Origin: Lachnospiraceae bacterium
Lineage (GTDB): Bacteria; Bacillota; Clostridia; Lachnospirales; Lachnospiraceae
Assembly (NCBI GenBank): GCA_017427775.1
Contig: JAFRSD010000022.1
Span: 1 to 33,351 of the forward strand
Direction of reading: 5' to 3'
DNA length: 33,351 bases
Shown here: positions 3,950 through 18,530 of the stretch, piece by piece
Layout of the letters: every line of letters begins with the position of its first letter
How positions within the stretch are numbered: the stretch's first letter is position 1
Notes under the pieces: model-generated
The model's input: only the letters and a program-made list of their open reading frames with translations
Database searches by the model: none
What the model was told of the DNA's origin: nothing
Position numbers and translations under genes: made by a program

Positions 3950-4900
3950 TTACTTTACTCTCTTACAAACAATGATCAGGCGGCCGTCCTCGACATAATG
4001 GTCGCAGGTTGACAGCGACAGGAGCTCGTCGCCCCAGACCGCGTCAAAGCCGCATGTATAAAGCGCACGCGAGCGCATCTCTTTCACGTAGGTGTTAAAC
4101 TGTTCCTCGGAAAGAACGCCGCCGTACTGGTAATATTTGAAAACTTTGTCGTCCTTCGCGTAAATCTTCGACCGGCACACATACATAACCTGATACACGC
4201 CGGTGCTGATCGCGGTATTGAAATAGACGTACGGATGCTCCTCCGCGTAGGCCTTGTCCTTATACTTCCGGAGCAGACCGAACGAGGTCCCGTCACGCAT
4301 ATCATGGCCGTACAGAATGTAATTGCGGCTCAGTCCGATCTTGGTCGCGCCGTCCATAAACGGCAGTCCGCGGACGTCATTCTTCTTATCAAGATTCCGG
4401 TTCAGATAATAATCATATTGCGATGGACAGAACATGACCGGATAAGACATCGTCGTGTCGGGGATCTCGATATAGCCGATGCAGTCACGGTTCTTTCCGA
4501 CCAGAACGGAATACTGCTCGCGCCATGTATCGGTAATCTCCTCCGTGAAGCTCGACACATACGCTACAAGCTCATGCTCCTCTTCATCGGGAAATACAAG
4601 GCGGTCGCGGTTCATACGGAGCGATTCCGCAAGATCCTCTTCGTTCTGCGAGATACCGCCGCCGATCTCTTCACTCAGGCGGCTCATCTCCTTCTTATAG
4701 CGGGCTCCCTTCACATAATACGAAATCAGCTGGAACGCGCAATAGAAAAAGATCAGGGCAAATACGACGAGCAGAACATCATAAATCCGGTTCTTTCCCT
4801 TCTTCGAAGCCTTTTCAGGCCGCACGGAAGCCTCGTCCGTCTCTTCGAGAAAGTCGTCCGATACCGTATCGTTTCTTTTCGTTTCGTCCGTTTCCGCCAT
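3950..4900 (-). CDS. Class B sortase
   Basis: 316 residues from the chosen start. A charged cytoplasmic N-terminus is followed by one membrane segment (about 41-60) and a sortase domain with His199 (ILYGHDM), Cys299 (LSLSTC) and Arg307 (EDGR), the full catalytic triad. The TLxTC-like motif close to the C-terminus and the helical insertions suit class B. An upstream in-frame ATG at 4948 has no ribosome site, whereas the ATG at 4900 has AGGGG 8 nt before it, so the shorter form is preferred. The enzyme cleaves a wall-sorting motif between Thr and Gly and joins the protein to peptidoglycan or pilin. The giant protein at 6975-18530 carries a matching N-P-S-T-G motif and is a candidate substrate. 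Confidence 0.92.
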   Translation of the reverse strand: MAETDETKRNDTVSDDFLEETDEASVRPEKASKKGKNRIYDVLLVVFALIFFYCAFQLISYYVKGARYKKEMSRLSEEIGGGISQNEEDLAESLRMNRDRLVFPDEEEHELVAYVSSFTEEITDTWREQYSVLVGKNRDCIGYIEIPDTTMSYPVMFCPSQYDYYLNRNLDKKNDVRGLPFMDGATKIGLSRNYILYGHDMRDGTSFGLLRKYKDKAYAEEHPYVYFNTAISTGVYQVMYVCRSKIYAKDDKVFKYYQYGGVLSEEQFNTYVKEMRSRALYTCGFDAVWGDELLSLSTCDHYVEDGRLIIVCKRVK

Positions 4901-4951
4901 GCTGTTTCCCCTGTCTTTAGAGACCGCCGGCACATTTTCCGGCAGCATGGA

Positions 4952-4980: not shown

Positions 4981-5051
4981 CCACTTATAAATCGGGCCGA
5001 AAAGGATAAAAAAACAGTAATATTCATATGGTATTTTCCGCAGCAATATGC

Positions 5052-5089
5052 TAAAATATGAGGCGATGAATTTTCTCAGATGAAAGGAG
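5052..5089 (+). promoter_or_regulatory. Probable promoter and strong ribosome site for the NifU-like/GGGtGRT operon
   Basis: An extended -10 like TGCTAAAAT has its hexamer at 5052-5057. No clear -35 exists, which is common with extended -10 promoters. AAAGGAG at 5083-5089 sits 10 nt before the ATG at 5100. The transcript leader would be only about 35-40 nt. Confidence 0.45.
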
Positions 5090-5099
5090 TTTTACTCGT

Positions 5100-5807
5100 A
5101 TGATTTATTCTCAGGAAGTAGAAAAAATGTGTACGGTTGCACAGGGCGTGCATCACGGTTGTGCCCCCATCCCTGAAGAAGCTAAGTGGATTCAGGCGAA
5201 GGAAGTAAAGGACATCTCCGGTTTCACTCACGGCGTAGGCTGGTGTGCTCCTCAGCAGGGCGCCTGCAAGCTGTCTCTGAACATTAAGGAAGGTATCATT
5301 CAGGAAGCTCTCGTTGAGACGATCGGCTGCTCCGGAATGACCCACTCTGCCGCTATGGCATCCGAAATTCTTCCGGGTCTCACCGTTCTCGAAGCACTGA
5401 ACACCGACCTTGTATGCGATGCGATCAACACCGCTATGAGAGAGCTGTTCCTGCAGATCGTATACGGTCGTTCCCAGAGCGCTTTCTCCGAAGACGGTCT
5501 TCCGGTAGGCGCAGGTCTTGAGGATCTCGGTAAAGGTCTCCGCTCTCAGGTTGGTACGATGTACGGCACTCTGAAGAAGGGTCCCCGTTACCTTGAGATG
5601 GCTGAAGGCTATGTTACCGGTATCGCACTTGACGCTAACAACGAAATTATCGGTTACAAGTTCGTTTCGCTCGGCAAGATGACCGACTTCATCAAGAAGG
5701 GCGACGATCCGAACACCGCTTATGCGAAGGCTTGCGGTCAGTACGGTCGTGTTGCCGATGCGGTTAAGATCATCGATCCCAGAACCGATAAAGAGTTAGA
5801 GAAGTAG
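5100..5807 (+). CDS. NifU/IscU-like iron-sulfur scaffold-type protein paired with GGGtGRT
   Basis: 235 residues. The region around 41-90 resembles the NifU/IscU scaffold fold: GWCAPQQGAC (47-56) and GCSGMTHSAAMASE (76-89) correspond to the first two cysteine loops of IscU. Cys106 could be the third ligand position, and Cys11, Cys21 and Cys212 are extra. The protein is longer than IscU (about 130 residues); the C-terminal about 100 residues have no domain I recognise. Databases usually label such genes iron-sulfur cluster assembly scaffold protein, but no isc or suf partner is seen here. It is followed after 12 bp by the GGGtGRT gene with a ribosome site overlapping the stop. Codons such as GCT, CGT and GGT are favoured, suggesting high expression. 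The actual function is unknown. Confidence 0.8.
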   Translation: MIYSQEVEKMCTVAQGVHHGCAPIPEEAKWIQAKEVKDISGFTHGVGWCAPQQGACKLSLNIKEGIIQEALVETIGCSGMTHSAAMASEILPGLTVLEALNTDLVCDAINTAMRELFLQIVYGRSQSAFSEDGLPVGAGLEDLGKGLRSQVGTMYGTLKKGPRYLEMAEGYVTGIALDANNEIIGYKFVSLGKMTDFIKKGDDPNTAYAKACGQYGRVADAVKIIDPRTDKELEK

Positions 5808-5819
5808 GAGGAAACGACA

Positions 5820-6830
5820 ATGGCATTATTTGAATCTTATGAGAGAAGAATTGACACGATCAATTCCGTATTGAACAGCTATGGCATCTCCTCCATCGAA
5901 GAGGCAGAAAAGATTACCAAGGACGCAGGCCTCAATGTTTATGATCAGGTTAAGAAGATTCAGCCGATCTGCTTTGAGAATGCTTGCTGGGCTTACACTG
6001 TAGGCGCTGCTATCGCAATCAAGAAGGGCTGCCGCAAGGCTGCTGATGCTGCTGCAGCAATCGGCGAAGGCCTTCAGGCATTCTGTATTCCCGGTTCCGT
6101 AGCCGACACCCGTAAGGTTGGTCTCGGTCATGGTAACCTCGGCAAGATGCTCCTCGAAGAGGACACCGACTGCTTCGCTTTCCTTGCAGGTCACGAGTCT
6201 TTCGCAGCTGCTGAAGGCGCTATCGGTATCGCAGAGAAGGCTAACAAAGTACGTAAGAAGCCCCTTCGTGTTATCCTGAACGGTCTTGGCAAGGACGCTG
6301 CTAAGATCATCTCCCGTATCAACGGCTTCACATTTGTCGAAACCGAGTACGATCCTTACACCAACACCGTTAAGGAAATCAGCAGAACCGCTTATTCCGA
6401 AGGTCTTCGTGCAAAGGTTAACTGCTACGGCGCTAACTCCGTTCCGGAAGGCGTAGCGATCATGTGGAAGGAGAACGTAGACGTTTCCATTACCGGTAAC
6501 TCCACGAACCCGACCCGTTTCCAGCATCCGGTTGCAGGTACCTACAAGAAGGAGCGCACCGAGGCAGGTAAGAAGTACTTCTCCGTTGCTTCCGGCGGTG
6601 GTACCGGACGTACGCTTCATCCCGATAACATGGCTGCTGGCCCTGCTTCCTATGGTTTCACCGATACGCTCGGCCGTATGCACAGTGACGCGCAGTTCGC
6701 AGGTTCCTCTTCCGTTCCGGCTCACGTAGAGATGATGGGTCTGATCGGTATGGGTAACAACCCGATGGTTGGCGCTACCGTTGCTGTTGCCGTTTCCGTT
6801 GAGGAAGCTGCTACCGCAGGCAAGTTCTAA
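5820..6830 (+). CDS. GGGtGRT family protein, function unknown
   Basis: 336 residues, recognised by the family-defining GGGTGRT motif (259-265), inside a conserved-looking SVASGGGTGRTLHPDN stretch. Other glycine-rich segments include GLGHGNLGK (101-109) and GVAIMWKENVDVSITGNSTNP (within 211-231). Cysteines at 51, 56, 71, 89, 118 and 202 could bind metal or cluster, but this is not shown. The protein appears soluble, with no signal peptide. AGGAGG lies about 7 nt before the ATG. The gene is the second and last of a two-gene operon with the NifU-like protein, ending at a strong terminator. The pairing of these families suggests a joint role, perhaps cluster-dependent; I know of no established biochemical activity. 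Confidence 0.85.
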   Translation: MALFESYERRIDTINSVLNSYGISSIEEAEKITKDAGLNVYDQVKKIQPICFENACWAYTVGAAIAIKKGCRKAADAAAAIGEGLQAFCIPGSVADTRKVGLGHGNLGKMLLEEDTDCFAFLAGHESFAAAEGAIGIAEKANKVRKKPLRVILNGLGKDAAKIISRINGFTFVETEYDPYTNTVKEISRTAYSEGLRAKVNCYGANSVPEGVAIMWKENVDVSITGNSTNPTRFQHPVAGTYKKERTEAGKKYFSVASGGGTGRTLHPDNMAAGPASYGFTDTLGRMHSDAQFAGSSSVPAHVEMMGLIGMGNNPMVGATVAVAVSVEEAATAGKF

Positions 6831-6855
6831 GAGATTAGATCACAACGATAATTTG

Positions 6856-6888
6856 AAAAAGGATGTCGGAATTCCGACATCCTTTTTT
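6856..6888 (+). terminator. Terminator of the GGGtGRT operon
   Basis: A perfect 22-bp palindromic stem (6861-6882) flanked by A5 and T6, 26 bp after the GGGtGRT stop codon. It would also work for minus-strand transcripts. Confidence 0.9.
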
Positions 6889-6903
6889 GTGTCTTCCGGT
6901 TGA

Positions 6904-6974: not shown

Positions 6975-7094
6975 TTACGCTTCTGCTTCCTCTTCCTTAC
7001 GTCTCTTGAGGAGAAGAACGATGAAGCATGCAGCGGAACCAAGCATGATCATCATCAGTTTGCCGGCCTCGAACTCATCACCGGTGGAAGGATT
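6975..7094 (-). other. Cell-wall sorting signal (N-P-S-T-G)
   Basis: The codons for N-P-S-T-G-D are at 7077-7094. They are followed by a hydrophobic stretch with MIMLGSAACFIVLLL and a tail beginning K-R-R-K. This is the standard tripartite sortase signal, with Asn in place of Leu at position 1, a variation found with class B and clostridial sortases. Confidence 0.88.
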
Positions 7095-10000
7095 TACATC
7101 CTTCTGCTCAACGATCGTGAATTCAACCGTTACGCTTTCGCCGTCATCGAACAGTGCTTCAATCGTGTGCTTACCGATTGCCAGCGTCTGCAGATATTCG
7201 GGCTTGAGCGAGATGATAACGCTGCCGGCGCGGACGGTGTATGCTCCTGCGGGAACATCGCTTCCGTCAACTCGGAAACCTGCCGAATGCTCAATCGTCG
7301 TGTGGTCATCTACGTTTCTTGCAAACTCGAATTCCTTAACGGTCAGAGTATTGTGCATCCAGGTCAGATCGGTCGGAGCCTTCAGATAGTAGAATACCTT
7401 TACTTCAATCGTAAACTTACCGCTTATGAAGGAAGTGATATGGTAATTACCCTGATCCTCTGCACCGGTTACGGTAATGATATACTCGCCGGGTGTATTG
7501 CCTTCTTCACGAGTAATCTCGAAATCAATCGTGTCATCTCCGAACAGATCAGCCGAAATGGTAAGCTGTGGCTCGGAATCACCTTCCGTGATTGTAATAT
7601 CATCAGCCGTTACGGTAATCTCAGCAGGAACAATGTCTACATAACCGTCTTCTTCAACAATGAAGGTAACCTTCTTGAAGTTCGGATTATTGTTCGTAAA
7701 CTGGTCTGCATCGAGACCCATGTAGGATTTGCCTGCATTCTTGCCGGAAACCTCTGCATTACCGTTGAAGACGATATCGTCTTCTGTGTAAAGGTCGCTC
7801 GAGATTTCTACATCATAACCCGTTGCGCTCTTCTCGGTCGAATCATAAGAGCCTTCGAACTTATGGCCTTTAATCTTAACAATTACTTCGTCAGCTTCAG
7901 CAACCCGGATATAACCATCCGTTACGTCAAATGTTACATCTACGTTCTCATTGGTGTTCGTAAACATATCGGCCTTGAGACCCATATCGGTCGTACCGGC
8001 ATCCGTGCGCTTCGCTTCAGCGGTTCCGTCAAATGTGAAATCATTATCAACATCATAGAACTCGCATTCCGTCGTCGCGGTATAACCGGTCACGGTGTAT
8101 TCGATGTTCTTATAAGGCTGAACATCAAACTTACCAACGATCGTTACAGTAACGTTAGCCTTCACGATCTCCTGATAACCGTCTGCAGCGATAACAAATG
8201 TTACCTTGTCGAAGTTCTCGCTATTGTTCTCGAACATATCGGGCGTAAGACCCATGTTCGACATTCCGACAACCGTACGATTAGCCTCTGCAGTTCCCTT
8301 GAAGGTGAAATCTGCTTCGGTGTAAAGGTCGTTACTGAATGTTACATCATATCCGCTTACAGTGTGCTTTGTATTGTCATAAGCAGCGCTGCCGTTGTGT
8401 CCGGTAATCTCTACCGTCACATCGATCGGAGTGATCTTAAACGTTCCGGTTTCAAATGTTACTTCGTAGTTCGGATTAGCAGTTGCCTCAGCGGAAGCGG
8501 TAATCGTATACTCACCGACATCCTGACCAGCTGCACGGCTTACGCTGTAAACAGGTGCAACACCCTTTGCAGGTACGCCGGTTGCCTTTGCTGTAAGCTC
8601 AGGATCTGTAGCAGGATTGTTATCATAAGGCTTCGTCTTATCCTCAGCCTTAATCGTGATCTCTGCAGGCGTGATCTTGAACGTACCGGTCTCAAACGTT
8701 ACCGTGTAGTTCGGATTAGCAGTTTCCTCAGCGGAAACGGTAATCGTGTAATCTCCTGCATCCTGGCCTGCTGTGCGGCTTACACTGTAAACAGGCTGTA
8801 CGCCATTATCGGGAAGTCCCGTTACCATTGCGGTAAGTTCAGGATCCGTTGCGGTATCGTTGTCGTAAGTCTTCGTCTTATTGTCTGCTTTGATGGTAAT
8901 CTCAGCAGCCTTGATATTAAACGTGCCGTCTTCCGTTGTTACATTGTAGTTCGCGGTTTCAGCTACTGCTACATGAATCGGATACTCTCCGACATCCTGT
9001 CCTTCCTCGCGGTTGACCAGGACATTAACCGTATCGCCTTCAACAAGTCCGTCAAATACAACCGTAAGTTCAGGATCCGTCGAAGCATCGTTATCGTATG
9101 TCTTCTCCTTATCCTGTGCGGATACAGTCAGATCCTTCTTCTTGATCTTAAAGATTCCGCCTTCAAAAGTAATGTCGTAGTTCGGATTAGCAGCTTCCTC
9201 TGCGGAAACGGTAATCACATATTCACCTGCATCCTGGCCTTCCTCACGGCTTACGCTGTAAACAGGCTGTACGCCATTTGCAGGAAGTCCGGTTACATTT
9301 GCCGTAAGCTCAGGATCGGACGATGCATCGTTGTCGTAAACCTTAGACTTATCTTCAGCTTTAATCGTGATTGCCTTCTCGTAGATAGAAAACGTACCGG
9401 TTTCAAAGGTAACATTGTAGTTCGGATTCGCGTCTTCTTCTGCAGAACCGGAAATCACATAATCGCCGGCATCCTGGCCTTCCTCACGAGTAAGCGTATA
9501 ACTGATTGTTTCGGTTCCGACAGTTCCTATTACATCTGCTGTAAGAGCAGGATCCGTTGAAGGATCATTGTCATAATCCTTATGAACATCTTTCGGCGTA
9601 ACCGTTACATCGACAGCATTGATCGTAAAGGTACCATCGACAAATGTAATCTTATAGTTCTTATTCGAACCCTCATTCTCTTCGTAAGCAGTAATCGTAT
9701 AGGTTCCTGCGTTCTGGCCTGCCTCACACTTCAAATCGTATACAGGAGCAACTCCTTTCACCGGAACTCCGGTAACCTGAGCGCTGAGCACCGGATCCGT
9801 GGAAGAATCATTGTCATAATCCTTCGACTTGTCATCTGCCGCGATCGTAATTTCAGCCTTTTCGATTGTGAAGGTTCCGTTTTCGGTAGTAATTGTATAA
9901 TTCGAATACTCTTCGGCTGCAAGCGTTTCTACGCTAATTACGTATTCACCTGCGTCCTGACCTGCCTCGCGGGAGAGAATGTAACCAATCTCGTCCTCTC

Positions 10001-13000
10001 CGATCGTTCCCTCAACCGTAGCGGAAAGCTCGGGATCGGTCGCCGCATCGTTATCGTAAGTCTTGGTCTTATTATCTGCTTTAATCGTTACCGTTGCAGG
10101 AGTAATCGTAAATTTACCGGGTTCATATTCTTCATCAAATGAGTAGTTCCCGATTTCATTGATTGCAACATAAATATAATATGTTCCAACATCCTGATCC
10201 TCAGGTTCACGATAGAGCGTAAGCACATATGTGTCGCCATCAACCAATCCGATTACACTACCGGTAAGTTCCGGATCTGTAGAAGGATCGTTATCGTATA
10301 CCTTGAACTTATCGTCAATCTTAAAGGACAAGGTTGCGGGTTCAATGGAGAACCAACCGGATTCCGTCGTCACATTATAGTTCGGATTATCGGACTCATT
10401 TACCGTTACCGTGATCTCATAGGAATCAACATCCTGTCCTGCTACACGACTCAGGCTGTAAACAATCTCATCTCCATCCACAGCATTCGTTACGGTTGCA
10501 GTAAGTTCAGGATCAGTATTCGGGTTCTTATCATAAGTCTTGGTCTTATCAACAGCCTTAATTGTAATATCCCTGGGATTGATCGTGATTCCGCCGTCCG
10601 TCACTTCAAACGTAACTGTAAAGTTATTATTGGTATTGCGGAAGTTACCTGCGGTAAGTCCCATAGATGTTGTTCCAACATTCTTACCGGAAGCCGTACC
10701 TCCATTATCGAGACCGCAAGTGAAATCTGCCTCATCATAAAGACTATTGCTGATCGACGTTACATCATATCCGCTCACGGTGTGTTCGATGCCGTCATAA
10801 GTCTGCGTGTCAGTGTGTCCGGCAATCTTAACAACAACCTCAGCCTCAGTGATGGAGAATACACCACTTTCCGTCGTGATCGTATAGAAGGGATTGTCAT
10901 CGCTCCGCGCGGTAACCGTGATCGCATAATTACCAACATCCTGACCCTCTTCACGGCTAAGGGAGTATACAAGCTGAACACCGTTCTCCGGAAGTCCGGT
11001 TACCGTAGCGGTAAGTGCCGGATCAGTAGTCGTGGCATTATCATACACCTTAGTCTTATTATCGGCCTTGATCGTAATAGCCCTCTTCGTGATCGTGAAA
11101 GTACCGTGTTCGGTTTCGATATCGTAGTTCTGATAATCGTCGCCAATCAGCACAGAGATCTGATACTCTCTGACGTCCTGACCGCCGACACGTTCCAAAT
11201 TATATGTGATCGTATCGTTTCCAATAAGACCGGAAACCGTTGCGGTAAGCTGCGGATCCGAATTGGGATCATTATCGTATTCCTTGGACTTATTCTCCGG
11301 AACGATCGTAACCACCGCTTTATTAATCTTGAATATTGCGCCGATTGTATTGATCGTATAGTTCGGATTATCATCCGCCACCACAAGAACACCAATCTCG
11401 TATTCGTCTGCATCCTGGCCCTCAGCACGAGCTAAGGTGTAAGTCGGAGCAACACCGTTCTCGGGAACTCCGCTAACCTCAGCGGTAAGCGCAGGATCGG
11501 TGGACGCATCGTTATCGTAAGTCTTTTCCTTACTATCTGCTTTGATCGTAATCTCGGCAGGCGTAATACTGAAGATTCCGTCTTCAGTAGAAATCGTATA
11601 GTTCGGATTGGCTTCAGCGTCAACCGTAACCGTGATCGTATAACCGTTTACATCCTGGCCTGCTTCACGGGAAAGCGAGTAAACAGGTGCAACACCATTT
11701 TCAGGTAATCCCGCTATAGCTTCTATGGTAAGTTCAGGATCAGTCGTGGAATCATTATCGTATACCTTGGTCTTGTCCTCAGCCTTGATAGTGATTGCCT
11801 TCGGATTAATCGTGATACTTCCATCAGTCACTTCAAATGTTACATCAAAGTTGTTATTCGTATTGTGGAAGTTATCTTTGGTAAGTCCCAAATCAGTTGT
11901 TCCTACATCCGTACGACTAGCAGATATTTCGGCCGTAGGACCAAATTCGAAATCTGCTACCGAATATAGATTATTACTAATATCTGTTACTACATATCCG
12001 CTTACAATGTGCTCATTACCGTCATAAGTAACCGTTTCAGAGTTACCGGTAATGGTAACCGTTACGGAATCACCTTTCGTGATCTTGTAAGTTCCGTCAA
12101 CCAACGTTAACGTGTAGTTCGGATTGTCCTCCGCATCAGCAGATACAATGATATCGTACTCTCCCACATTCTGCTCATGATCACAATTCACCTCATAAAC
12201 AGGAGCAACGCCCTTCGCAGGCACATTATCTACCGTCGCGGTAAACGCGGGATCGGTGGATGTATTATTATCATACTGCTTCGTCTGATTAACTGCAGTA
12301 ATCGTGATTGCTGCAGGGTTAATCTTGAAGGTGCCTCCTTCAGTAGTTATAGTGTAATTCGAATAAACCTCAGCATCAGGAACCTCTACGCTAATGTCGT
12401 AGGATCCAACATTCTGTCCCTCTGCACGAGTCAAATTGTAAATCGGAACATCACAATTATCCGGAACACCTGTAACCTCAGCGGTAAGAATAGGATCATT
12501 ATCCGCATCATTATCGTATGTCTTCTCCTTATTCACTGCCTTAATGGTTACCGGTGCAGCAGTAATCGTAAATGTTCCAAACTGATAATCCTCAGCAATA
12601 ATATAGTTATCAAGTTCGACATCAAGATCAACATAAATATTATATGTTCCAACTTCCTGAGCGGCATTCGGATCTACAGGATCACGATAGAACGTGGGTA
12701 CATAAGTGTCACCCTCAACAAGTCCATCGACACTACCGGTAAGTTCCGGGTCGGTAGAAGGATTGTTATCATAAACCTTAGACTTATTCTCTACCGTAAT
12801 TGTCAAGGTTGCGGGTTCGATTGTGAACGTTCCGGGTACCGTCGTAATACTGTAGTTCGGATTTTCATCCTCAACGACATTAACAGTAATTACATAGGTA
12901 TCAGCATTCTGGCCCGGTTCACGGCTCAGCGAGTAAACGGGAGCAACACCATGCGAAGGTACACCATCTACCGTTGCCGTAAGATCAGGATCAGAACTCG

Positions 13001-16000
13001 AGTTCTTATCATATGTCTTGGAATTATCGTCAGCTGTAATTGTGATTTCAGCCTTATCGATCGTGATGCTGCCATCCGCCACAACAAATGTTACATCAAA
13101 GTTGTTGTTGGTATTGCGGAAGTCCCCTTTAGTAAGTCCCAAAGGCGATGATCCGGCATCCGTACGAGTAACCGAAATTCCGCCCTCGCGGCCAAATTCG
13201 ATATCTGCTTCCGTATAAAGAGAATTACTGATTGAAGTTACTTCATATCCGCTTACGGTATGCTCATCTCCGTCATAAGTAAACGTGTCCGAGTTACCGG
13301 TAATCTCAACAACAATGCCTTCCGGCTTTGTGATGGAAAATGTACCGGGCTGAACCGTTATTGTATAGTTCGGGTTGGAAGCTGCTTCTGCTGTTACAGT
13401 GATTGCATAATCATTTACATCCTGACCCTCAGCACGGCTAAGGGAGTAAACAGGTGCAACACCATGTGCAGGTACTCCTGTTACCGTTGCGGTAAGTTCA
13501 GGATCCGTTAAAGTGTCATTATCATATACCTTCGACTGATTATCCGCTTTGATCGTAATCTCAACAGGAGTAATCTCAAAAATACCATCCTCAACAGTTA
13601 TTGTATAGTTCGGATTAGCATTTGCTTCTGCAGTAACGGTAATCGTATACTCATCAACATCCTGACCCTCTGCACGGTTTAAACTGTATGTGGGCAGTAC
13701 ACCATTCGCAGGCTTTCCAGTTACCGTTGCCGTAAGTTCCGGATCAGTAGTTTCGTCATTATCATATACCTTCGTCGTATCATCTGCCGTGATTGTGATT
13801 GCAGCAGGCGTAATTGTGAACGTACCATCCTCAAAGGTAATGGTATAGTTCGGATTTGCACCTTCCTGTGCGGAAGCGGTAATCACATAATCAGCGACAT
13901 CCTGACCATCCACACGGGTAAGACTGTAAGAAAGAGCATCACCATTATCAGGTCGTCCTGTTACCGTTGCGGTAAGTTCAGGATCAGTTCCAGGATTGTT
14001 ATCGTAAACCTTCGTCTGATCATCTGCCTTAATTGTAATTGCAGCAGGAGTAATGCTGAAGGTTCCATCTTCAGTGGAAATTGTATAATTCTTATTGGCC
14101 TCTGCTTCTGCGTCAACCGTAACTGTGATAAGATAATCGTTTACATCCTGTCCCGGTTCGCGGCTCAGCGTGTAAACAGGTTCAACACCGTGTTCAGGCA
14201 AGCCTGTTATTTCTTTTATGGCAAGTTCAGGATCAGTCGAGGAATCATTATCATATACTTTTTCCTGATTCTCCGCTTTTATCGTGATTGCAACAGGATT
14301 AATCACCAGCTGAGCATCCGTTACGTTAAACGTAACATCATAGTTCGGACTTTCTGCTCTAAAGGTATCTTCGGTTAATCCCAAAGGATAAGTGCCGGCA
14401 TCTGTTCCTGTAACCATGACAGGATCCATATCTATGGTGACATCAGCAATCGAGAACAATTCTGAAGTCGATTCAAAATCAAATCCTTCAACACTGTGAG
14501 GATTTCCGTCATAAGGCAGCGTATCAGTGTGTCCGGTAATCGTCACAGTAACACTCAGCTGCGTAATCTTCTGATATCCGTCAGTAACTACAAACGTTAC
14601 GTTATCAAAGTTATCACTGACGTTAGTAAACTGTTCAGAAGCCAGACCCATATCTGCCTTACCGACATTCTGCTGTGTTGCAGTGGCTTCTCCGGAGAAA
14701 GTAAAGCAATCTCCCGTATATAAGGAATTGCTGAACTCTACATCATAGCCATTTACAGTATGGTCGATGCCGTCATAGACTGCAGAATTGTAATGTCCGG
14801 TAATCGTAACCGTAACATCAATGGGATTAATCTTCTGATAACCGTCGGTCACGTTAAATGTTACCGTACCGAAGTTTTGATTAATATTGGCAAACTGATC
14901 CTCATCCAGACCCATGTTGGAGGTTCCGGCATCGGTACGAGAGGCTTCCGCAGTTCCGCTAAATGTAAAGTCTGCCTCAGTATAAAGGTCATTACTAATC
15001 TCTACTTCATAGCCGGACACACTATGCAAATTACCATCATAATCCGTTGTATTATTGTGTCCGGTAATCGTTACCGTTACGTCAATCGTATTAATTGTTT
15101 GATAACCATCAGTAACGTTAAACGTTACCGTACCAAAGTTCGCATTCGTATTTGCAAACTGATCTGCCGCGAGACCCATGTTGGTTGTTCCGGCCTCGGT
15201 ACGAGCGGCCTGTGCGGTCCCACTGAATACGAAATCATTATCTACATCATAAAGATCAGAATCAGCAGTAGCGGTATAACCGGTTACAGTATGCTCCGCG
15301 CCGTCATAAGCACAGGCGTTGTTTGCTCCGGTAATCGTTACCGTTACATCAATTGGATTGATTGTCTGATAACCATCGGTTACATCAAACGTTACCGTAG
15401 CGAAGTTTGTATTCGTATTGGTAAACTGATCTGCAGCTAGCCCCATGTTGGTGGTTCCGGCATCGGTACGAGCCGCCGTAGCACTTCCGCCAAATGTAAA
15501 GTCAGCTTCCGTATAAAGGTCACTACTAATCTCCACATCATAGCCGGATACACTATGCGAATCACCATCATAATCTGTAGTATTATTGCGTCCGGTAATT
15601 GTTACCGTGACATTGATCGGATTAATCGTCAGATAGCCATCAGCAGCAATCACAAATGTAACTTCCTCAAAGTTATCATTCGTATTGGTGAACTGATCGA
15701 CAGTAAGGTCCATGTTGGTCGTTCCAGCATCGGTACGATTTATAAGATTAGTTCCGCTAAATGTAAAGTCATTCTCGGTATAAAGGGCATTATCAATCTC
15801 TACATCATAACCGGACACACTATGCGTTTCTCCGTCATAGTCCACAGCCTCATAGTGTCCGGTAATCGTTACCGTTACACCTGAAATCGGATTAATTGTC
15901 TGATAGCCATCAGTAACATTAAACGTTACCGTGTTGAAGTTAGTATTCGTATTGGTAAACTGATCTGCAGCAAGACCCATGTTGGTTGTTCCGGCATTGG

Positions 16001-18530
16001 TACGAGCAGCTTCTGCCGTTCCGCTAAATGTAAAGTCAGCTTCCGTATAAAGCGGACTGCTGAATACTGCAGTGTATCCGGACACGCTATGCTCTGCCCC
16101 ATCATAATCACACGCGTTGTTTGCTCCGGTAATCGTTACCGTTACATCAATCTTATCAATCGTCTGATAACCATCAGTAACTTCAAATGTTACTGTACCA
16201 AAGTTCGGATTGTTATTAGCAAACATGCCAGAAGTAAGGCCCATGTTTGTGGTTCCGAAATCTGTCCGAGAAGCCTCAGCGGTCCCCGTAAATGTGATAT
16301 CAGAATTTACATTATAAAGAGTCGAGTTGGCAGCGGCAGTATAACCGGTTACGGTATGCTCCTCGCCATCATAATCATCCGTACTATTATTACCGGTAAT
16401 CGTTACCGTTACATTAATCGGGTCGATCTTCTGATAACCATCAATTACATTAAAGGTAATCTTATCATTATCAAAGTTCGCATTGTTATTCGTAAACATG
16501 GATGCAGTAAGACCCATGCTGGTAGTTCCGGCATCAGTACGCTTCGCTTCTGCCGTTCCGCTAAACGTAAAGTCTTCCGCAGTATAAAGATTATTATTGA
16601 TGGACACCTCATATCCGGACACACTATGTTCTTCTCCATCATAGTCCGTAGTACTATTGTGTCCGTTAATCGTTACAACGATTTCATTCTCATATTCCGT
16701 GATTGTCTGGAAACCATCCGTAACGGAAAATGCAACATTCTCGAAGTTATCATTTGTATTAGTAAACTGATCTCCGGCGAGTCCCATGTTGGTGGTCCCG
16801 ACATCAGTACGTGATGCTTCAGCAGTTCCGTTGAAGGAAAAATCATCCTGCGTGTAGATCGGATTTGTGCTACTAAAATCATAATCGGACACACTGTGCG
16901 ATTCTCCGTCATAAGCAGTTGTGTTATTATGTCCGGTAATAGTAACCGCAGCAGTTGCCTTCGTAATCTTAAGGGCAACCGGATTCTCAACCTCTCCAGT
17001 GATTTCGTTGGATGTCACGCGTACACGAACAAGCTTGTCGCATACATCAGTCTCCTCAGGTGCAGTAGTCGACCATGCAGACCAGGTCGCACTCTCAGCA
17101 TTATCCTTAACGCTGTATTCTACAGTTGCCTCAACGCCATCCTCAATTTCTACAGTAATCGAATGGCTCTGCTTATCATATGTTCCTTCATATCCGGTTA
17201 AAGTCACATATTTAGGTATAGCACGATATACGGCAGTATATGTGATTGTATCCGTTGAAGAAATCTTCGGAAGCTGTTCGTCTTTACCATAAGTATTGGT
17301 TCCGTCCGACCAGCCGTCCCATACATATTCGTAAAGATCATCTGCAGGTTTTGTGGGCTCAGCACCATCATAAGACGGAATCGTACCACCAACTACACCG
17401 TTATCCGTTTCAAGCGTGGTCCCATTAGAATTCTTCCAAACCACCTTAGCTTTTTTCGATGATTTGTAAAGTTTCGCCTCATAATCCCGATGATACACTA
17501 CGGAATCGTTCGTTAATCCATCCCAATCAGAGTGATTGCCTCCGCCAACCCAACCTGCTTCGTCTTCAAACCAATCTGCATCATTATGAATTTTGTCCAA
17601 TACAGTAATTTTCTTGACGGTAACCTTATAGTAAGGTTCAAAATAATCATCTGCAGGTTGATAATTCGAATCCTTATAAATATATGATACGGAGCTGTTA
17701 TCCTTTAAAACAATATCGGAGAAATCATACTCCTCAGGACAAATTGTCTGGTAAAACTGAAAACCATAAACATCCTTATTAGGTTCGAGAGAAAAATTGA
17801 GGTTTTCTTCCGCAGGAATATAATTAATTGTTGAAGCCTGCGTCAAACGAAAATAATCTTTGTTTCCTGTAACGCCAATTACATTTAAGAAATTATAAAG
17901 ATTTTCTTCTGACGGTATCCCCCTAATGGTTTGAATATGATAATCACGATGATAACTCTTTCGAGGATCTAAACTAAACGCATTATCGGGTGTGACATAA
18001 TGATACCCCGACGCGCCAATCTTCTTTTTCACGGCCTTAATTGGCTCAACGCCGGTAACATAATACACACCGTTTATCGTATCCTGCGTATAGTTTGAAG
18101 GGTTAGCCAAATAATCGTCCAGATCATCTATATAAATATATGTGCCATCATAAGTTGCCGGTGCACTGTTGTGCGTAATGTAAAGAATCTCACCGGAGAA
18201 ATCATACGAAGCAGCTTCCAATATTTCATCAACGGGAATGTCTTTGCCTGTAGCATCACCAGAAAGTCCGGAAACATAATGGTCTAAGTCATATGACGTA
18301 TTAATATAGGTTCTACGAAGAATGCCATATTGATTAAGTTCGTTAACCTTAACAAAATTATACAGAACATACTCGTCGTCGTTCAGCCATTCATCGTCTT
18401 CCGCATACGCTGTTCCTACTCCTTTCCCCAAGCCGAGTGCGCTTCCGAGGTATGACAGATGGCCCTCTGTCAATACCATGCACAGGGCGAGGAAAAATAC
18501 CGTAATTCTTTTGATCAATGATTTCTTCAT
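6975..18530 (-). CDS. Giant wall-anchored surface protein with MBG/Ig-like repeats
   Basis: 3851 residues. Order: signal peptide (about 1-43, ending A-Y-A), unrecognised N-terminal region (44-355), an InlB B-repeat/Flg_new-like segment (about 360-437), an Ig-like unit with YEGTYDKQSHS (447-457), about 38 tandem modules (about 527-3710), a unique C-terminal domain, then N-P-S-T-G-D, a hydrophobic helix and the tail K-R-R-K. Type A modules (about 88 residues, 16 copies) carry ITGHNNTTxYDGxxHSVSGY and TDAGTTNMGL. Type B (about 80 residues, 22 copies) carry KVYDNDxSTDPELTATVTG and match the MBG_2 type. Such proteins are usually stalks or adhesins; the ligand is unknown. The reading frame is intact across 11.5 kb. 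Ribosome-site spacing is odd: GGGAG lies 20 nt before the ATG. A class B sortase 13 kb downstream along this strand is a likely partner. Confidence 0.93.
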   Translation of the reverse strand: MKKSLIKRITVFFLALCMVLTEGHLSYLGSALGLGKGVGTAYAEDDEWLNDDEYVLYNFVKVNELNQYGILRRTYINTSYDLDHYVSGLSGDATGKDIPVDEILEAASYDFSGEILYITHNSAPATYDGTYIYIDDLDDYLANPSNYTQDTINGVYYVTGVEPIKAVKKKIGASGYHYVTPDNAFSLDPRKSYHRDYHIQTIRGIPSEENLYNFLNVIGVTGNKDYFRLTQASTINYIPAEENLNFSLEPNKDVYGFQFYQTICPEEYDFSDIVLKDNSSVSYIYKDSNYQPADDYFEPYYKVTVKKITVLDKIHNDADWFEDEAGWVGGGNHSDWDGLTNDSVVYHRDYEAKLYKSSKKAKVVWKNSNGTTLETDNGVVGGTIPSYDGAEPTKPADDLYEYVWDGWSDGTNTYGKDEQLPKISSTDTITYTAVYRAIPKYVTLTGYEGTYDKQSHSITVEIEDGVEATVEYSVKDNAESATWSAWSTTAPEETDVCDKLVRVRVTSNEITGEVENPVALKITKATAAVTITGHNNTTAYDGESHSVSDYDFSSTNPIYTQDDFSFNGTAEASRTDVGTTNMGLAGDQFTNTNDNFENVAFSVTDGFQTITEYENEIVVTINGHNSTTDYDGEEHSVSGYEVSINNNLYTAEDFTFSGTAEAKRTDAGTTSMGLTASMFTNNNANFDNDKITFNVIDGYQKIDPINVTVTITGNNSTDDYDGEEHTVTGYTAAANSTLYNVNSDITFTGTAEASRTDFGTTNMGLTSGMFANNNPNFGTVTFEVTDGYQTIDKIDVTVTITGANNACDYDGAEHSVSGYTAVFSSPLYTEADFTFSGTAEAARTNAGTTNMGLAADQFTNTNTNFNTVTFNVTDGYQTINPISGVTVTITGHYEAVDYDGETHSVSGYDVEIDNALYTENDFTFSGTNLINRTDAGTTNMDLTVDQFTNTNDNFEEVTFVIAADGYLTINPINVTVTITGRNNTTDYDGDSHSVSGYDVEISSDLYTEADFTFGGSATAARTDAGTTNMGLAADQFTNTNTNFATVTFDVTDGYQTINPIDVTVTITGANNACAYDGAEHTVTGYTATADSDLYDVDNDFVFSGTAQAARTEAGTTNMGLAADQFANTNANFGTVTFNVTDGYQTINTIDVTVTITGHNNTTDYDGNLHSVSGYEVEISNDLYTEADFTFSGTAEASRTDAGTSNMGLDEDQFANINQNFGTVTFNVTDGYQKINPIDVTVTITGHYNSAVYDGIDHTVNGYDVEFSNSLYTGDCFTFSGEATATQQNVGKADMGLASEQFTNVSDNFDNVTFVVTDGYQKITQLSVTVTITGHTDTLPYDGNPHSVEGFDFESTSELFSIADVTIDMDPVMVTGTDAGTYPLGLTEDTFRAESPNYDVTFNVTDAQLVINPVAITIKAENQEKVYDNDSSTDPELAIKEITGLPEHGVEPVYTLSREPGQDVNDYLITVTVDAEAEANKNYTISTEDGTFSITPAAITIKADDQTKVYDNNPGTDPELTATVTGRPDNGDALSYSLTRVDGQDVADYVITASAQEGANPNYTITFEDGTFTITPAAITITADDTTKVYDNDETTDPELTATVTGKPANGVLPTYSLNRAEGQDVDEYTITVTAEANANPNYTITVEDGIFEITPVEITIKADNQSKVYDNDTLTDPELTATVTGVPAHGVAPVYSLSRAEGQDVNDYAITVTAEAASNPNYTITVQPGTFSITKPEGIVVEITGNSDTFTYDGDEHTVSGYEVTSISNSLYTEADIEFGREGGISVTRTDAGSSPLGLTKGDFRNTNNNFDVTFVVADGSITIDKAEITITADDNSKTYDKNSSSDPDLTATVDGVPSHGVAPVYSLSREPGQNADTYVITVNVVEDENPNYSITTVPGTFTIEPATLTITVENKSKVYDNNPSTDPELTGSVDGLVEGDTYVPTFYRDPVDPNAAQEVGTYNIYVDLDVELDNYIIAEDYQFGTFTITAAPVTIKAVNKEKTYDNDADNDPILTAEVTGVPDNCDVPIYNLTRAEGQNVGSYDISVEVPDAEVYSNYTITTEGGTFKINPAAITITAVNQTKQYDNNTSTDPAFTATVDNVPAKGVAPVYEVNCDHEQNVGEYDIIVSADAEDNPNYTLTLVDGTYKITKGDSVTVTITGNSETVTYDGNEHIVSGYVVTDISNNLYSVADFEFGPTAEISASRTDVGTTDLGLTKDNFHNTNNNFDVTFEVTDGSITINPKAITIKAEDKTKVYDNDSTTDPELTIEAIAGLPENGVAPVYSLSREAGQDVNGYTITVTVDAEANPNYTISTEDGIFSITPAEITIKADSKEKTYDNDASTDPALTAEVSGVPENGVAPTYTLARAEGQDADEYEIGVLVVADDNPNYTINTIGAIFKINKAVVTIVPENKSKEYDNDPNSDPQLTATVSGLIGNDTITYNLERVGGQDVREYQISVLIGDDYQNYDIETEHGTFTITKRAITIKADNKTKVYDNATTTDPALTATVTGLPENGVQLVYSLSREEGQDVGNYAITVTARSDDNPFYTITTESGVFSITEAEVVVKIAGHTDTQTYDGIEHTVSGYDVTSISNSLYDEADFTCGLDNGGTASGKNVGTTSMGLTAGNFRNTNNNFTVTFEVTDGGITINPRDITIKAVDKTKTYDKNPNTDPELTATVTNAVDGDEIVYSLSRVAGQDVDSYEITVTVNESDNPNYNVTTESGWFSIEPATLSFKIDDKFKVYDNDPSTDPELTGSVIGLVDGDTYVLTLYREPEDQDVGTYYIYVAINEIGNYSFDEEYEPGKFTITPATVTIKADNKTKTYDNDAATDPELSATVEGTIGEDEIGYILSREAGQDAGEYVISVETLAAEEYSNYTITTENGTFTIEKAEITIAADDKSKDYDNDSSTDPVLSAQVTGVPVKGVAPVYDLKCEAGQNAGTYTITAYEENEGSNKNYKITFVDGTFTINAVDVTVTPKDVHKDYDNDPSTDPALTADVIGTVGTETISYTLTREEGQDAGDYVISGSAEEDANPNYNVTFETGTFSIYEKAITIKAEDKSKVYDNDASSDPELTANVTGLPANGVQPVYSVSREEGQDAGEYVITVSAEEAANPNYDITFEGGIFKIKKKDLTVSAQDKEKTYDNDASTDPELTVVFDGLVEGDTVNVLVNREEGQDVGEYPIHVAVAETANYNVTTEDGTFNIKAAEITIKADNKTKTYDNDTATDPELTAMVTGLPDNGVQPVYSVSRTAGQDAGDYTITVSAEETANPNYTVTFETGTFKITPAEITIKAEDKTKPYDNNPATDPELTAKATGVPAKGVAPVYSVSRAAGQDVGEYTITASAEATANPNYEVTFETGTFKITPIDVTVEITGHNGSAAYDNTKHTVSGYDVTFSNDLYTEADFTFKGTAEANRTVVGMSNMGLTPDMFENNSENFDKVTFVIAADGYQEIVKANVTVTIVGKFDVQPYKNIEYTVTGYTATTECEFYDVDNDFTFDGTAEAKRTDAGTTDMGLKADMFTNTNENVDVTFDVTDGYIRVAEADEVIVKIKGHKFEGSYDSTEKSATGYDVEISSDLYTEDDIVFNGNAEVSGKNAGKSYMGLDADQFTNNNPNFKKVTFIVEEDGYVDIVPAEITVTADDITITEGDSEPQLTISADLFGDDTIDFEITREEGNTPGEYIITVTGAEDQGNYHITSFISGKFTIEVKVFYYLKAPTDLTWMHNTLTVKEFEFARNVDDHTTIEHSAGFRVDGSDVPAGAYTVRAGSVIISLKPEYLQTLAIGKHTIEALFDDGESVTVEFTIVEQKDVNPSTGDEFEAGKLMMIMLGSAACFIVLLLKRRKEEEAEA
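9612..12065 (-). repeat. Ten-module super-repeat, copy 2 (A12, B9-B12, A13, B13-B16)
   Basis: 2454 bp, directly abutting copy 1 and nearly the same length. Within each copy the order is A, four B, A, four B. Individual modules are more like their counterpart in the other copy than like their neighbours at the diagnostic positions, which indicates one block duplication rather than single-module copying. Confidence 0.75.
12066..14555 (-). repeat. Ten-module super-repeat, copy 1 (A10, B1-B4, A11, B5-B8)
   Basis: This segment pairs module by module with the next 2.45 kb. Diagnostic matches: B1 and B9 share the long YTISTEDG ending and a -TVDAEA- insertion; B5 and B13 share T-Y-D-K-N; B6 and B14 share DPELTGSV and GDTYV; B8 and B16 share the Cys before the -G-Q-N- or -E-Q-N- loop. 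Length is 2490 bp. Confidence 0.75.

What the first reader, a model, noticed from the sequence alone, without database searches (positions are those of the whole stretch)
5100..6830. NifU-like plus GGGtGRT two-gene unit: an uncharacterised, apparently highly expressed system
The two genes are 12 bp apart, share one promoter and terminator, and use a much more biased codon set (GCT, CGT, GGT) than their neighbours, which usually marks abundant proteins. The first resembles an IscU scaffold with two of its cysteine loops but carries about 100 extra residues; the second has six cysteines in the first 202 residues and a glycine-rich GGGTGRT motif. No isc/suf machinery is nearby. A cluster-carrying enzyme or storage pair is a possible reading, but this is inference.
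Basis: partly seen in the sequence, partly recalled or inferred. Interest (0 to 1): 0.75.

Follow-up and report, generated by a model that had tools for sequence, protein, structure and literature searches.

The report
Iron-linked NifU-like/GGGtGRT protein pair
Two neighbouring genes, found side by side wherever the DNA was long enough to tell, make abundant proteins of unknown function that published studies show falling sharply when iron runs out; they are probably an iron-sulfur handling complex of gut anaerobes.

Summary
Genes 5100-5807 (235 aa) and 5820-6830 (336 aa) lie 12 bp apart before a strong terminator, with codon usage like or beyond that of ribosomal proteins. They are an obligate pair: in 398 genomes each family occurs in the same 29, always adjacent; the pair also occurs in Bacteroidota, Actinomycetota and Vibrio. 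Protein 1 is a remote IscU homologue with three invariant cysteines (C49, C77, C106; 230 of 230 rows) in a non-IscU arrangement. Protein 2 is Pfam GGGtGRT. Its confident model (pLDDT 87) has no significant PDB match, and the GGGTGRT loop is predicted flexible. Published tables, hardly discussed by their authors, show both genes falling without iron in Bacteroides (11-13-fold) and Clostridium pasteurianum (up to 7-fold). In 293 genomes of the window's class, pair and ferritin tend to exclude each other (odds ratio 0.20, not fully corrected for kinship). Best reading: an iron-replete Fe-S reservoir or carrier complex; an ordinary Fe-S enzyme is almost as likely. Metal binding and complex formation are untested. 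Side finding: the GGGtGRT 3' end looks like an integration site for tyrosine recombinases.

The parts
5049..5057 (+). extended -10-like promoter element TGCTAAAAT (putative)
   Evidence: read; consensus scan found no full promoter; similar words enriched upstream of relatives
5100..5807 (+). NifU-like protein, 235 aa; remote IscU homologue with about 100 extra residues
5244..5246 (+). codon of invariant Cys49 (GxCAPxQG loop)
   Evidence: 230 of 230 rows
5262..5402 (+). IscU-like core, residues 55-101
   Evidence: hhalign of A4 with the genome's canonical NifU, E 3.4e-7; A4 profile against PDB IscU chains, E about 5e-5
5328..5330 (+). codon of invariant Cys77 (ETIGCSG, in the position of the IscU FGCG cysteine)
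   Evidence: 230 of 230 rows; alignments
5415..5417 (+). codon of invariant Cys106 (NTDLVCDAI)
   Evidence: 230 of 230 rows
5820..6830 (+). GGGtGRT protein (PF14057), 336 aa; helical N-terminal part plus alternating strand/helix part
   Evidence: AF2 pLDDT 87.4, pTM 0.87; no PDB match at E<=0.001
6594..6614 (+). GGGTGRT motif, residues 259-265, at the start of a segment of low model confidence (261-277)
6856..6888 (+). intrinsic terminator, 14-bp stem, AATT loop, T run
   Evidence: fold of 6831-6900, z -4.0

Best explanation
The two genes encode the subunits of one iron-regulated complex that holds and hands on iron-sulfur in iron-replete anaerobes. Shown: strict pairing, codon usage of abundant proteins, IscU ancestry, three invariant cysteines in subunit 1, none in subunit 2, strong iron dependence in two phyla (published data), and negative association with ferritin in the window's class. 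Inferred: C49, C77 and C106 ligate an Fe-S cluster (or nascent Fe-S) on the NifU-like subunit. Inferred: the segment between NTD and DAI, where IscU carries its LPPVK chaperone-recognition motif (recalled), has no counterpart, so the Fe-S is not passed on by the usual HscA route. Inferred: GGGtGRT docks on the NifU-like subunit and, through its many invariant His, Asp, Glu, Arg and Lys residues and a mobile glycine loop, binds an anionic ligand that caps, loads or releases the Fe-S. The unit would be a reservoir or carrier of Fe-S that many Clostridia have where others have ferritin.
For: Pairing: same 29 of 398 genomes for both families, all 30 places adjacent; 78 of 80 Lachnospiraceae-type loci (76 at the stricter ORF length), the other 2 with 40 and 46 bp before the contig end; 59 of 60 chosen loci of the class, the exception 6 bp from a contig end; 30 of 30 best-scoring loci, two of them with gaps of 374 and 445 bp; 8 of 8 examined plasmid-collection records in Bacteroidota, Actinomycetota, Bacillota and Vibrio. 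Abundance; both families named in metaproteomes (PMC11204068, PMC7035244, PMC12014591, PMC13041051; passages). Iron: BT0173-74 down 11 to 12.8-fold without iron, ferritin BT3823 down 2.7-fold (PMC10434189 Table 6, passages); C. pasteurianum GGGtGRT 7.1x (early) and 2.2x (late) higher with iron, two NifU-related spots 2.4x and 3.7x (early), 1.6x and 2.9x (late) (PMC5395762 Table 2, section read). Ferritin: 56 both, 93 pair only, 108 ferritin only, 36 neither of 293; the own genome has the pair and no ferritin match. Cysteines. No conserved metabolic neighbour (best clusters 24 of 136 loci).
Against: Metal binding and complex formation are untested. Fe-S enzymes in general also fall without iron (PFOR, hydrogenase and aconitase do in the same C. 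pasteurianum table), so the iron response does not single out storage. GGGtGRT is very strongly conserved (mean column identity 80% over 106 rows), more like an enzyme than a store. Ferritin exclusion is incompletely corrected for kinship: by family P 0.0017 with 20 of the 36 'neither' genomes unlabelled, 0.67 in the worst case. 56 of 293 genomes, and Bacteroides thetaiotaomicron, have both. No iron-regulator site is evident: the Fur pattern is not enriched upstream.
Confidence: 0.38

Rival explanations
1. A two-subunit Fe-S enzyme of central or protective metabolism: the NifU-like subunit carries a cluster, GGGtGRT binds the substrate near the glycine loop. Expression falls without iron because the cell saves iron.
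For: 92 invariant positions in GGGtGRT over 106 rows including many charged residues; alternating strand/helix part with the best, non-significant Foldseek overlaps to nucleotide- or phosphate-binding enzymes (E 3.7e-3 and up); low model confidence at 261-277, as for a loop that orders on ligand binding; iron-dependent Fe-S enzymes behave alike in PMC5395762 Table 2.
Against: No conserved metabolic gene next to the pair; negative association with ferritin is not expected of it; no substrate suggested by any search.
Confidence: 0.35
2. A dedicated assembly scaffold and its client or maturase: the NifU-like protein builds a cluster and passes it only to GGGtGRT.
For: IscU kinship and no counterpart of the normal hand-off segment; strict pairing.
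Against: A scaffold should be catalytic in amount, yet both genes show codon usage of abundant proteins; GGGtGRT has no invariant cysteine to receive a cluster.
Confidence: 0.14
3. No Fe-S: the NifU-like protein binds zinc as SufU does, and the pair serves another process that is high in growing cells.
For: SufU-type proteins share the fold and bind Zn (recalled; SufU chains among the matches); high expression alone needs no iron.
Against: Iron response of both genes in two phyla; the Asp of the IscU/SufU CGD motif (recalled) is absent.
Confidence: 0.08

Closest known systems
IscU/NifU-N scaffold (PF01592)
   Same: Core residues 55-101 align with the genome's canonical NifU (E 3.4e-7); C77 falls on the conserved IscU cysteine; three cysteines are invariant
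   Different: Window protein below the Pfam cut-off (18 vs 22 bits); first cysteine moved, no APxCGD motif; no counterpart of the LPPVK-HC segment; about 100 extra C-terminal residues; no desulfurase seen beside it in the ORFs and none among the commonest neighbours (by eye); strict GGGtGRT partner
GGGtGRT protein (PF14057)
   Same: Full-length member, E 1.7e-189
   Different: Nothing seen. No function is shown for the family in the passages of the nine papers found; one lists it among software-predicted virulence factors (PMC9942572), which its spread in commensals and environmental bacteria does not favour
IssA thioferrate iron-sulfur store of Pyrococcus furiosus (PMC5524996, abstract and outline seen)
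   Same: Proposed job: protein-bound Fe-S store
   Different: IssA belongs to the NifB/NifX domain family by its abstract; no sequence link to this pair was tested
Ferritin (PF00210)
   Same: More abundant with iron in Bacteroides; partly complementary distribution
   Different: Different family by Pfam; a ferrihydrite store, not Fe-S

Membership tests
IscU/NifU-N (PF01592) | Pfam gathering score | tested here: not met
   18.0 vs 22 bits for the window protein; 16 of 16 family members match at E<=1, best 7.1e-6
IscU/NifU-N (PF01592) | remote homology to IscU | tested here: met
   profile vs PDB IscU chains E 4.8e-5; hhalign E 3.4e-7 over 47 columns
IscU/NifU-N (PF01592) | IscU fold | tested here: inconclusive
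   own AF2 model too poor to use (pLDDT 49.9 from 4 rows)
IscU/NifU-N (PF01592) | three conserved cysteines in IscU register | tested here: not met
   three cysteines are invariant (230 of 230 rows), but only C77 aligns with an IscU cysteine
IscU/NifU-N (PF01592) | APxCGD loop with conserved Asp (motif recalled) | tested here: not met
   replaced by CAPxQGxxKL
IscU/NifU-N (PF01592) | LPPVK-type chaperone motif (recalled) | tested here: not met
   NTDLVCDAI is continuous in 16 of 16 rows; no such segment
IscU/NifU-N (PF01592) | binds a transferable Fe-S cluster | not testable with these tools
   needs protein chemistry
GGGtGRT (PF14057) | full-length profile match over cut-off and GGGTGRT motif | tested here: met
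   629 bits, 4-330 on 1-327; motif at 259-265
SIS sugar isomerase domain | profile similarity to SIS or SIS_2 | tested here: inconclusive
   SIS_2 score 22.9 on 10 columns only (40 shuffled controls, max 20.7); SIS 13.4, within controls; no SIS name among the 50 of 1274 Foldseek rows shown
Iron-sulfur store | holds many Fe and S per protein and releases them | not testable with these tools
   needs purified protein

The most novel reading that the evidence does not exclude
The pair is a third kind of biological iron reserve beside ferritin and IssA: a highly abundant IscU-derived Fe-S storing and dispensing complex that takes ferritin's place in much of the strictly anaerobic gut flora.
Probability: 0.2. 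Interest if true: 0.9.

Novelty: new variant of a known kind. Interest (0 to 1): 0.62.

Why it matters
These proteins are repeatedly detected in gut and rumen metaproteomes and were found here in about half of the class of the window's genome (149 of 293), yet no function was found in the papers. The linkage, the iron response and the ferritin exclusion give one testable hypothesis. If right, it changes how anaerobes are thought to buffer iron, the element their energy metabolism depends on.

Tried and rejected
SIS-domain idea for GGGtGRT: suggested by recalled motif likeness, weak in hhalign (10 columns, just above the shuffled controls), absent from the 50 Foldseek rows shown, dropped. Internal duplication in the NifU-like protein: hhalign P 0.4, dropped. 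AF2 of the NifU-like protein with 4 rows: pLDDT 49.9, not used. Fur box upstream: not enriched. A Crp/FNR-like palindrome TGTGANNNNNNTCACA is enriched (13 of 184 with at most 1 mismatch, 1.2 expected), and Rex-like sites too, but the window's upstream stretch has no close match (3 of 10 positions wrong for the palindrome; 6 for Rex and 5 for Fur), so no regulator is claimed. Rfam: nothing at gathering score in the window. Conserved third partner: none found; a 63-aa ORF between the genes of Parabacteroides matched no other locus held. Viral structure library: not completed.

Tallies that could mislead: the 237 and 230 alignment rows include loci that come from the same genome twice. The ferritin and pair searches used E 1e-8. 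Loci were found in viral contigs, so they over-represent integrations; L158/L165 are one contig and L177/L257 one genome. The 60 loci were chosen by me from 149 positives.

Full report
What is there. The window (contig 18 of a 2.63-Mb genome; the nearest relatives in the genome collection are mostly titled Lachnospiraceae) holds two + strand genes, 5100-5807 and 5820-6830, 12 bp apart. A 14-bp terminator hairpin follows at 6856-6888 (z -4.0). No consensus promoter was found; an extended -10-like element lies at 5049-5057. Codon adaptation against 20 ribosomal-operon ORFs of the same genome is 0.740 and 0.814; 74 background ORFs average 0.526, and 2 and 0 of them reach these values.

Identity. 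Protein 2 is a full-length GGGtGRT protein (PF14057, E 1.7e-189). Protein 1 is a remote IscU homologue: below the Pfam cut-off alone, but a family profile finds PDB IscU chains at E about 5e-5 and aligns to the genome's own canonical NifU at E 3.4e-7. That canonical gene, the genome's only NifU_N match, sits next to a desulfurase-like ORF on another contig (by eye).

Pairing. The NifU-like profile and PF14057 were run over the same draw of 398 genomes of the phylum: 29 hits each, the same 29 genomes, all 30 places adjacent. One genome (G207) has two pairs. In one (G341) the NifU-like gene is truncated. Of 80 loci from the genome collection (the best 80 of at least 586), 78 have the partner upstream, some cut by a contig end, and 2 have only 40 and 46 bp before the contig end. 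Of 60 loci chosen from 149 positive genomes of the class, 59 are paired and the other lies 6 bp from a contig end. Of the 30 loci that itself returned, all 30 have the partner upstream on the same strand, two with gaps of 374 and 445 bp. Eight of the ten matching plasmid-collection records were examined and all are paired: Parabacteroides (with a 63-aa ORF between), Phocaeicola, Bacteroides, two Persicobacter, Collinsella, Subdoligranulum and Vibrio. No other neighbour is conserved: the commonest clusters occur in 24 of 136 loci. The converse, NifU-like genes without GGGtGRT, was tested only in the 398 genomes (none).

Residues. In 230 NifU-like rows C49, C77 and C106 are invariant and C56 nearly so (227). 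C77 falls on the IscU FGCG cysteine; the first loop reads CAPxQG instead of APxCGD; NTDLVCDAI is continuous where IscU carries its LPPVK-HC segment (IscU motifs recalled; alignments). In 237 GGGtGRT rows no cysteine is invariant (172, 136, 156, 229, 231 and 219 of 237), while R98, H104, H125, E126, E132, R145, K158, D159, R166, E210, R233, H236, K243, R264, D269, D282, R286 and D290 are, and H302 in all 236 rows that reach it.

Structure. GGGtGRT was modelled from 106 rows at pLDDT 87.4, pTM 0.87: helices up to residue 112, then alternating strands and helices; residues 261-277, in and after the motif, are below 50. Foldseek finds no PDB match at E<=0.001. The best is 3.7e-3 to a phosphofructokinase with TM 0.23; UDP-GlcNAc 2-epimerases follow at TM up to about 0.29. 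So the overall fold has no close solved relative by this one method; the second aligner was not available. The NifU-like model was poor.

Iron. Papers that hold the word GGGtGRT: 9 in the library searched. I saw passages of all nine and one whole section of one. None of the passages shows a function; one lists the family among software-predicted virulence factors of Clostridium innocuum (PMC9942572). In B. thetaiotaomicron BT0173-74 (GGGtGRT, NifU) fall 11 to 12.8-fold in iron-depleted medium, P given as 0; ferritin falls 2.7-fold. The discussing passage seen mentions only NifU, under nitrogen regulation (PMC10434189). In C. pasteurianum GGGtGRT is 7.1-fold (early) and 2.2-fold (late) higher with iron, and two NifU-related spots are 2.4- and 3.7-fold (early), 1.6- and 2.9-fold (late) higher; the locus tags F502_05012 and F502_05017 are neighbours (PMC5395762 Table 2). 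Iron-dependent enzymes in the same table behave likewise, so the response shows an iron link, not a function. GGGtGRT was called highly expressed in vivo in several phyla (PMC11204068, passages).

Ferritin. The same 293 genomes of the class were searched for ferritin. Both 56, pair only 93, ferritin only 108, neither 36; odds ratio 0.20, P 1.2e-10 without correction for kinship. In the own family 12 of 13 have the pair and 1 has ferritin. Collapsed to 71 families (273 of 293 genomes labelled): 17, 17, 32, 5; P 0.0017. If the 20 unlabelled 'neither' genomes were 20 further families the effect would vanish (P 0.67). A within-family permutation gives 56 shared against 61.6 expected, P 0.0018, with the same gap in labels. 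This is a lead, not proof.

Judgement. Shown: strict pairing, expression signal, IscU ancestry, a distinctive three-cysteine set, iron dependence in two phyla. Inferred: Fe-S binding, physical complex, reservoir or carrier role. A reservoir or carrier explains the ferritin pattern, abundance, iron response and lack of pathway neighbours. An Fe-S enzyme better explains the extreme conservation of GGGtGRT. I rate them 0.38 and 0.35.

Integration site. Three sequence groups of tyrosine recombinase (PF00589 in the four proteins tested) lie within 1.5 kb downstream of GGGtGRT or of a 3' fragment of it in 29 loci; for scale, 163 loci have at least 1.5 kb downstream, not all 29 among them (viral-contig loci and a few repeated loci inflate the count). 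Four viral contig loci hold a 3' fragment (parts of residues 275-333) inside the contig followed by such a gene (L163, L164, L165, L170), and one contig carries the gene end and a second fragment (L158, L165). A conserved 3' end used as attachment site fits; exact att cores were not mapped. None of the passages read in the nine papers mentions this.

Noticed in passing
L163:4998-6760, L165:4998-6672, L158:1-2142, L018:8001-10377, L250:2604-4840: The 3' end of the GGGtGRT gene looks like an attachment site: duplicated 3' fragments and three sequence groups of tyrosine recombinase directly downstream, in viral contigs and in Clostridia-type genomes.
   Followed up: partly
window 6975-18530 (-) and 3950-4948 (-): A 3851-aa repetitive surface-type protein flanks the pair: MBG_2 domain in its last 500 residues (no family in its first 1000), tandem repeats of about 240 and 267 bp and an NPSTGDE..hydrophobic..KRRK tail. 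A sortase-domain protein (PF04203, E 1.6e-10) lies on the other side.
   Followed up: partly
L114:1504-2873: In one genome (G341) the NifU-like gene is truncated at about model position 148 and runs out of frame into a GGGtGRT gene that lacks about its first 12 residues; the pair may be decaying there, or it is an assembly error.
   Followed up: no
L141 and L115 (second pair of genome G207): A divergent second pair in which otherwise nearly invariant residues change (H267 to N, H288 to Y, T262 to I), still adjacent: a natural variant for function tests.
   Followed up: no
upstream of the NifU-like gene in relatives, e.g. L036, L038, L066 (about 60 bp before ATG): A palindrome of the type TGTKANNNNNNTMACA is enriched just upstream of the pair in some relatives; the window's upstream stretch has it only with 3 mismatches. 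It could be the operator of an unknown regulator.
   Followed up: partly
L142:4800-4991: Parabacteroides has a 63-aa membrane-like ORF between the two genes; no similar ORF was found in the other loci held.
   Followed up: partly
L184 and L179 (class genomes G579 and G448): In two loci the gap between the two genes is widened to 445 and 374 bp; what fills it was not looked at.
   Followed up: no
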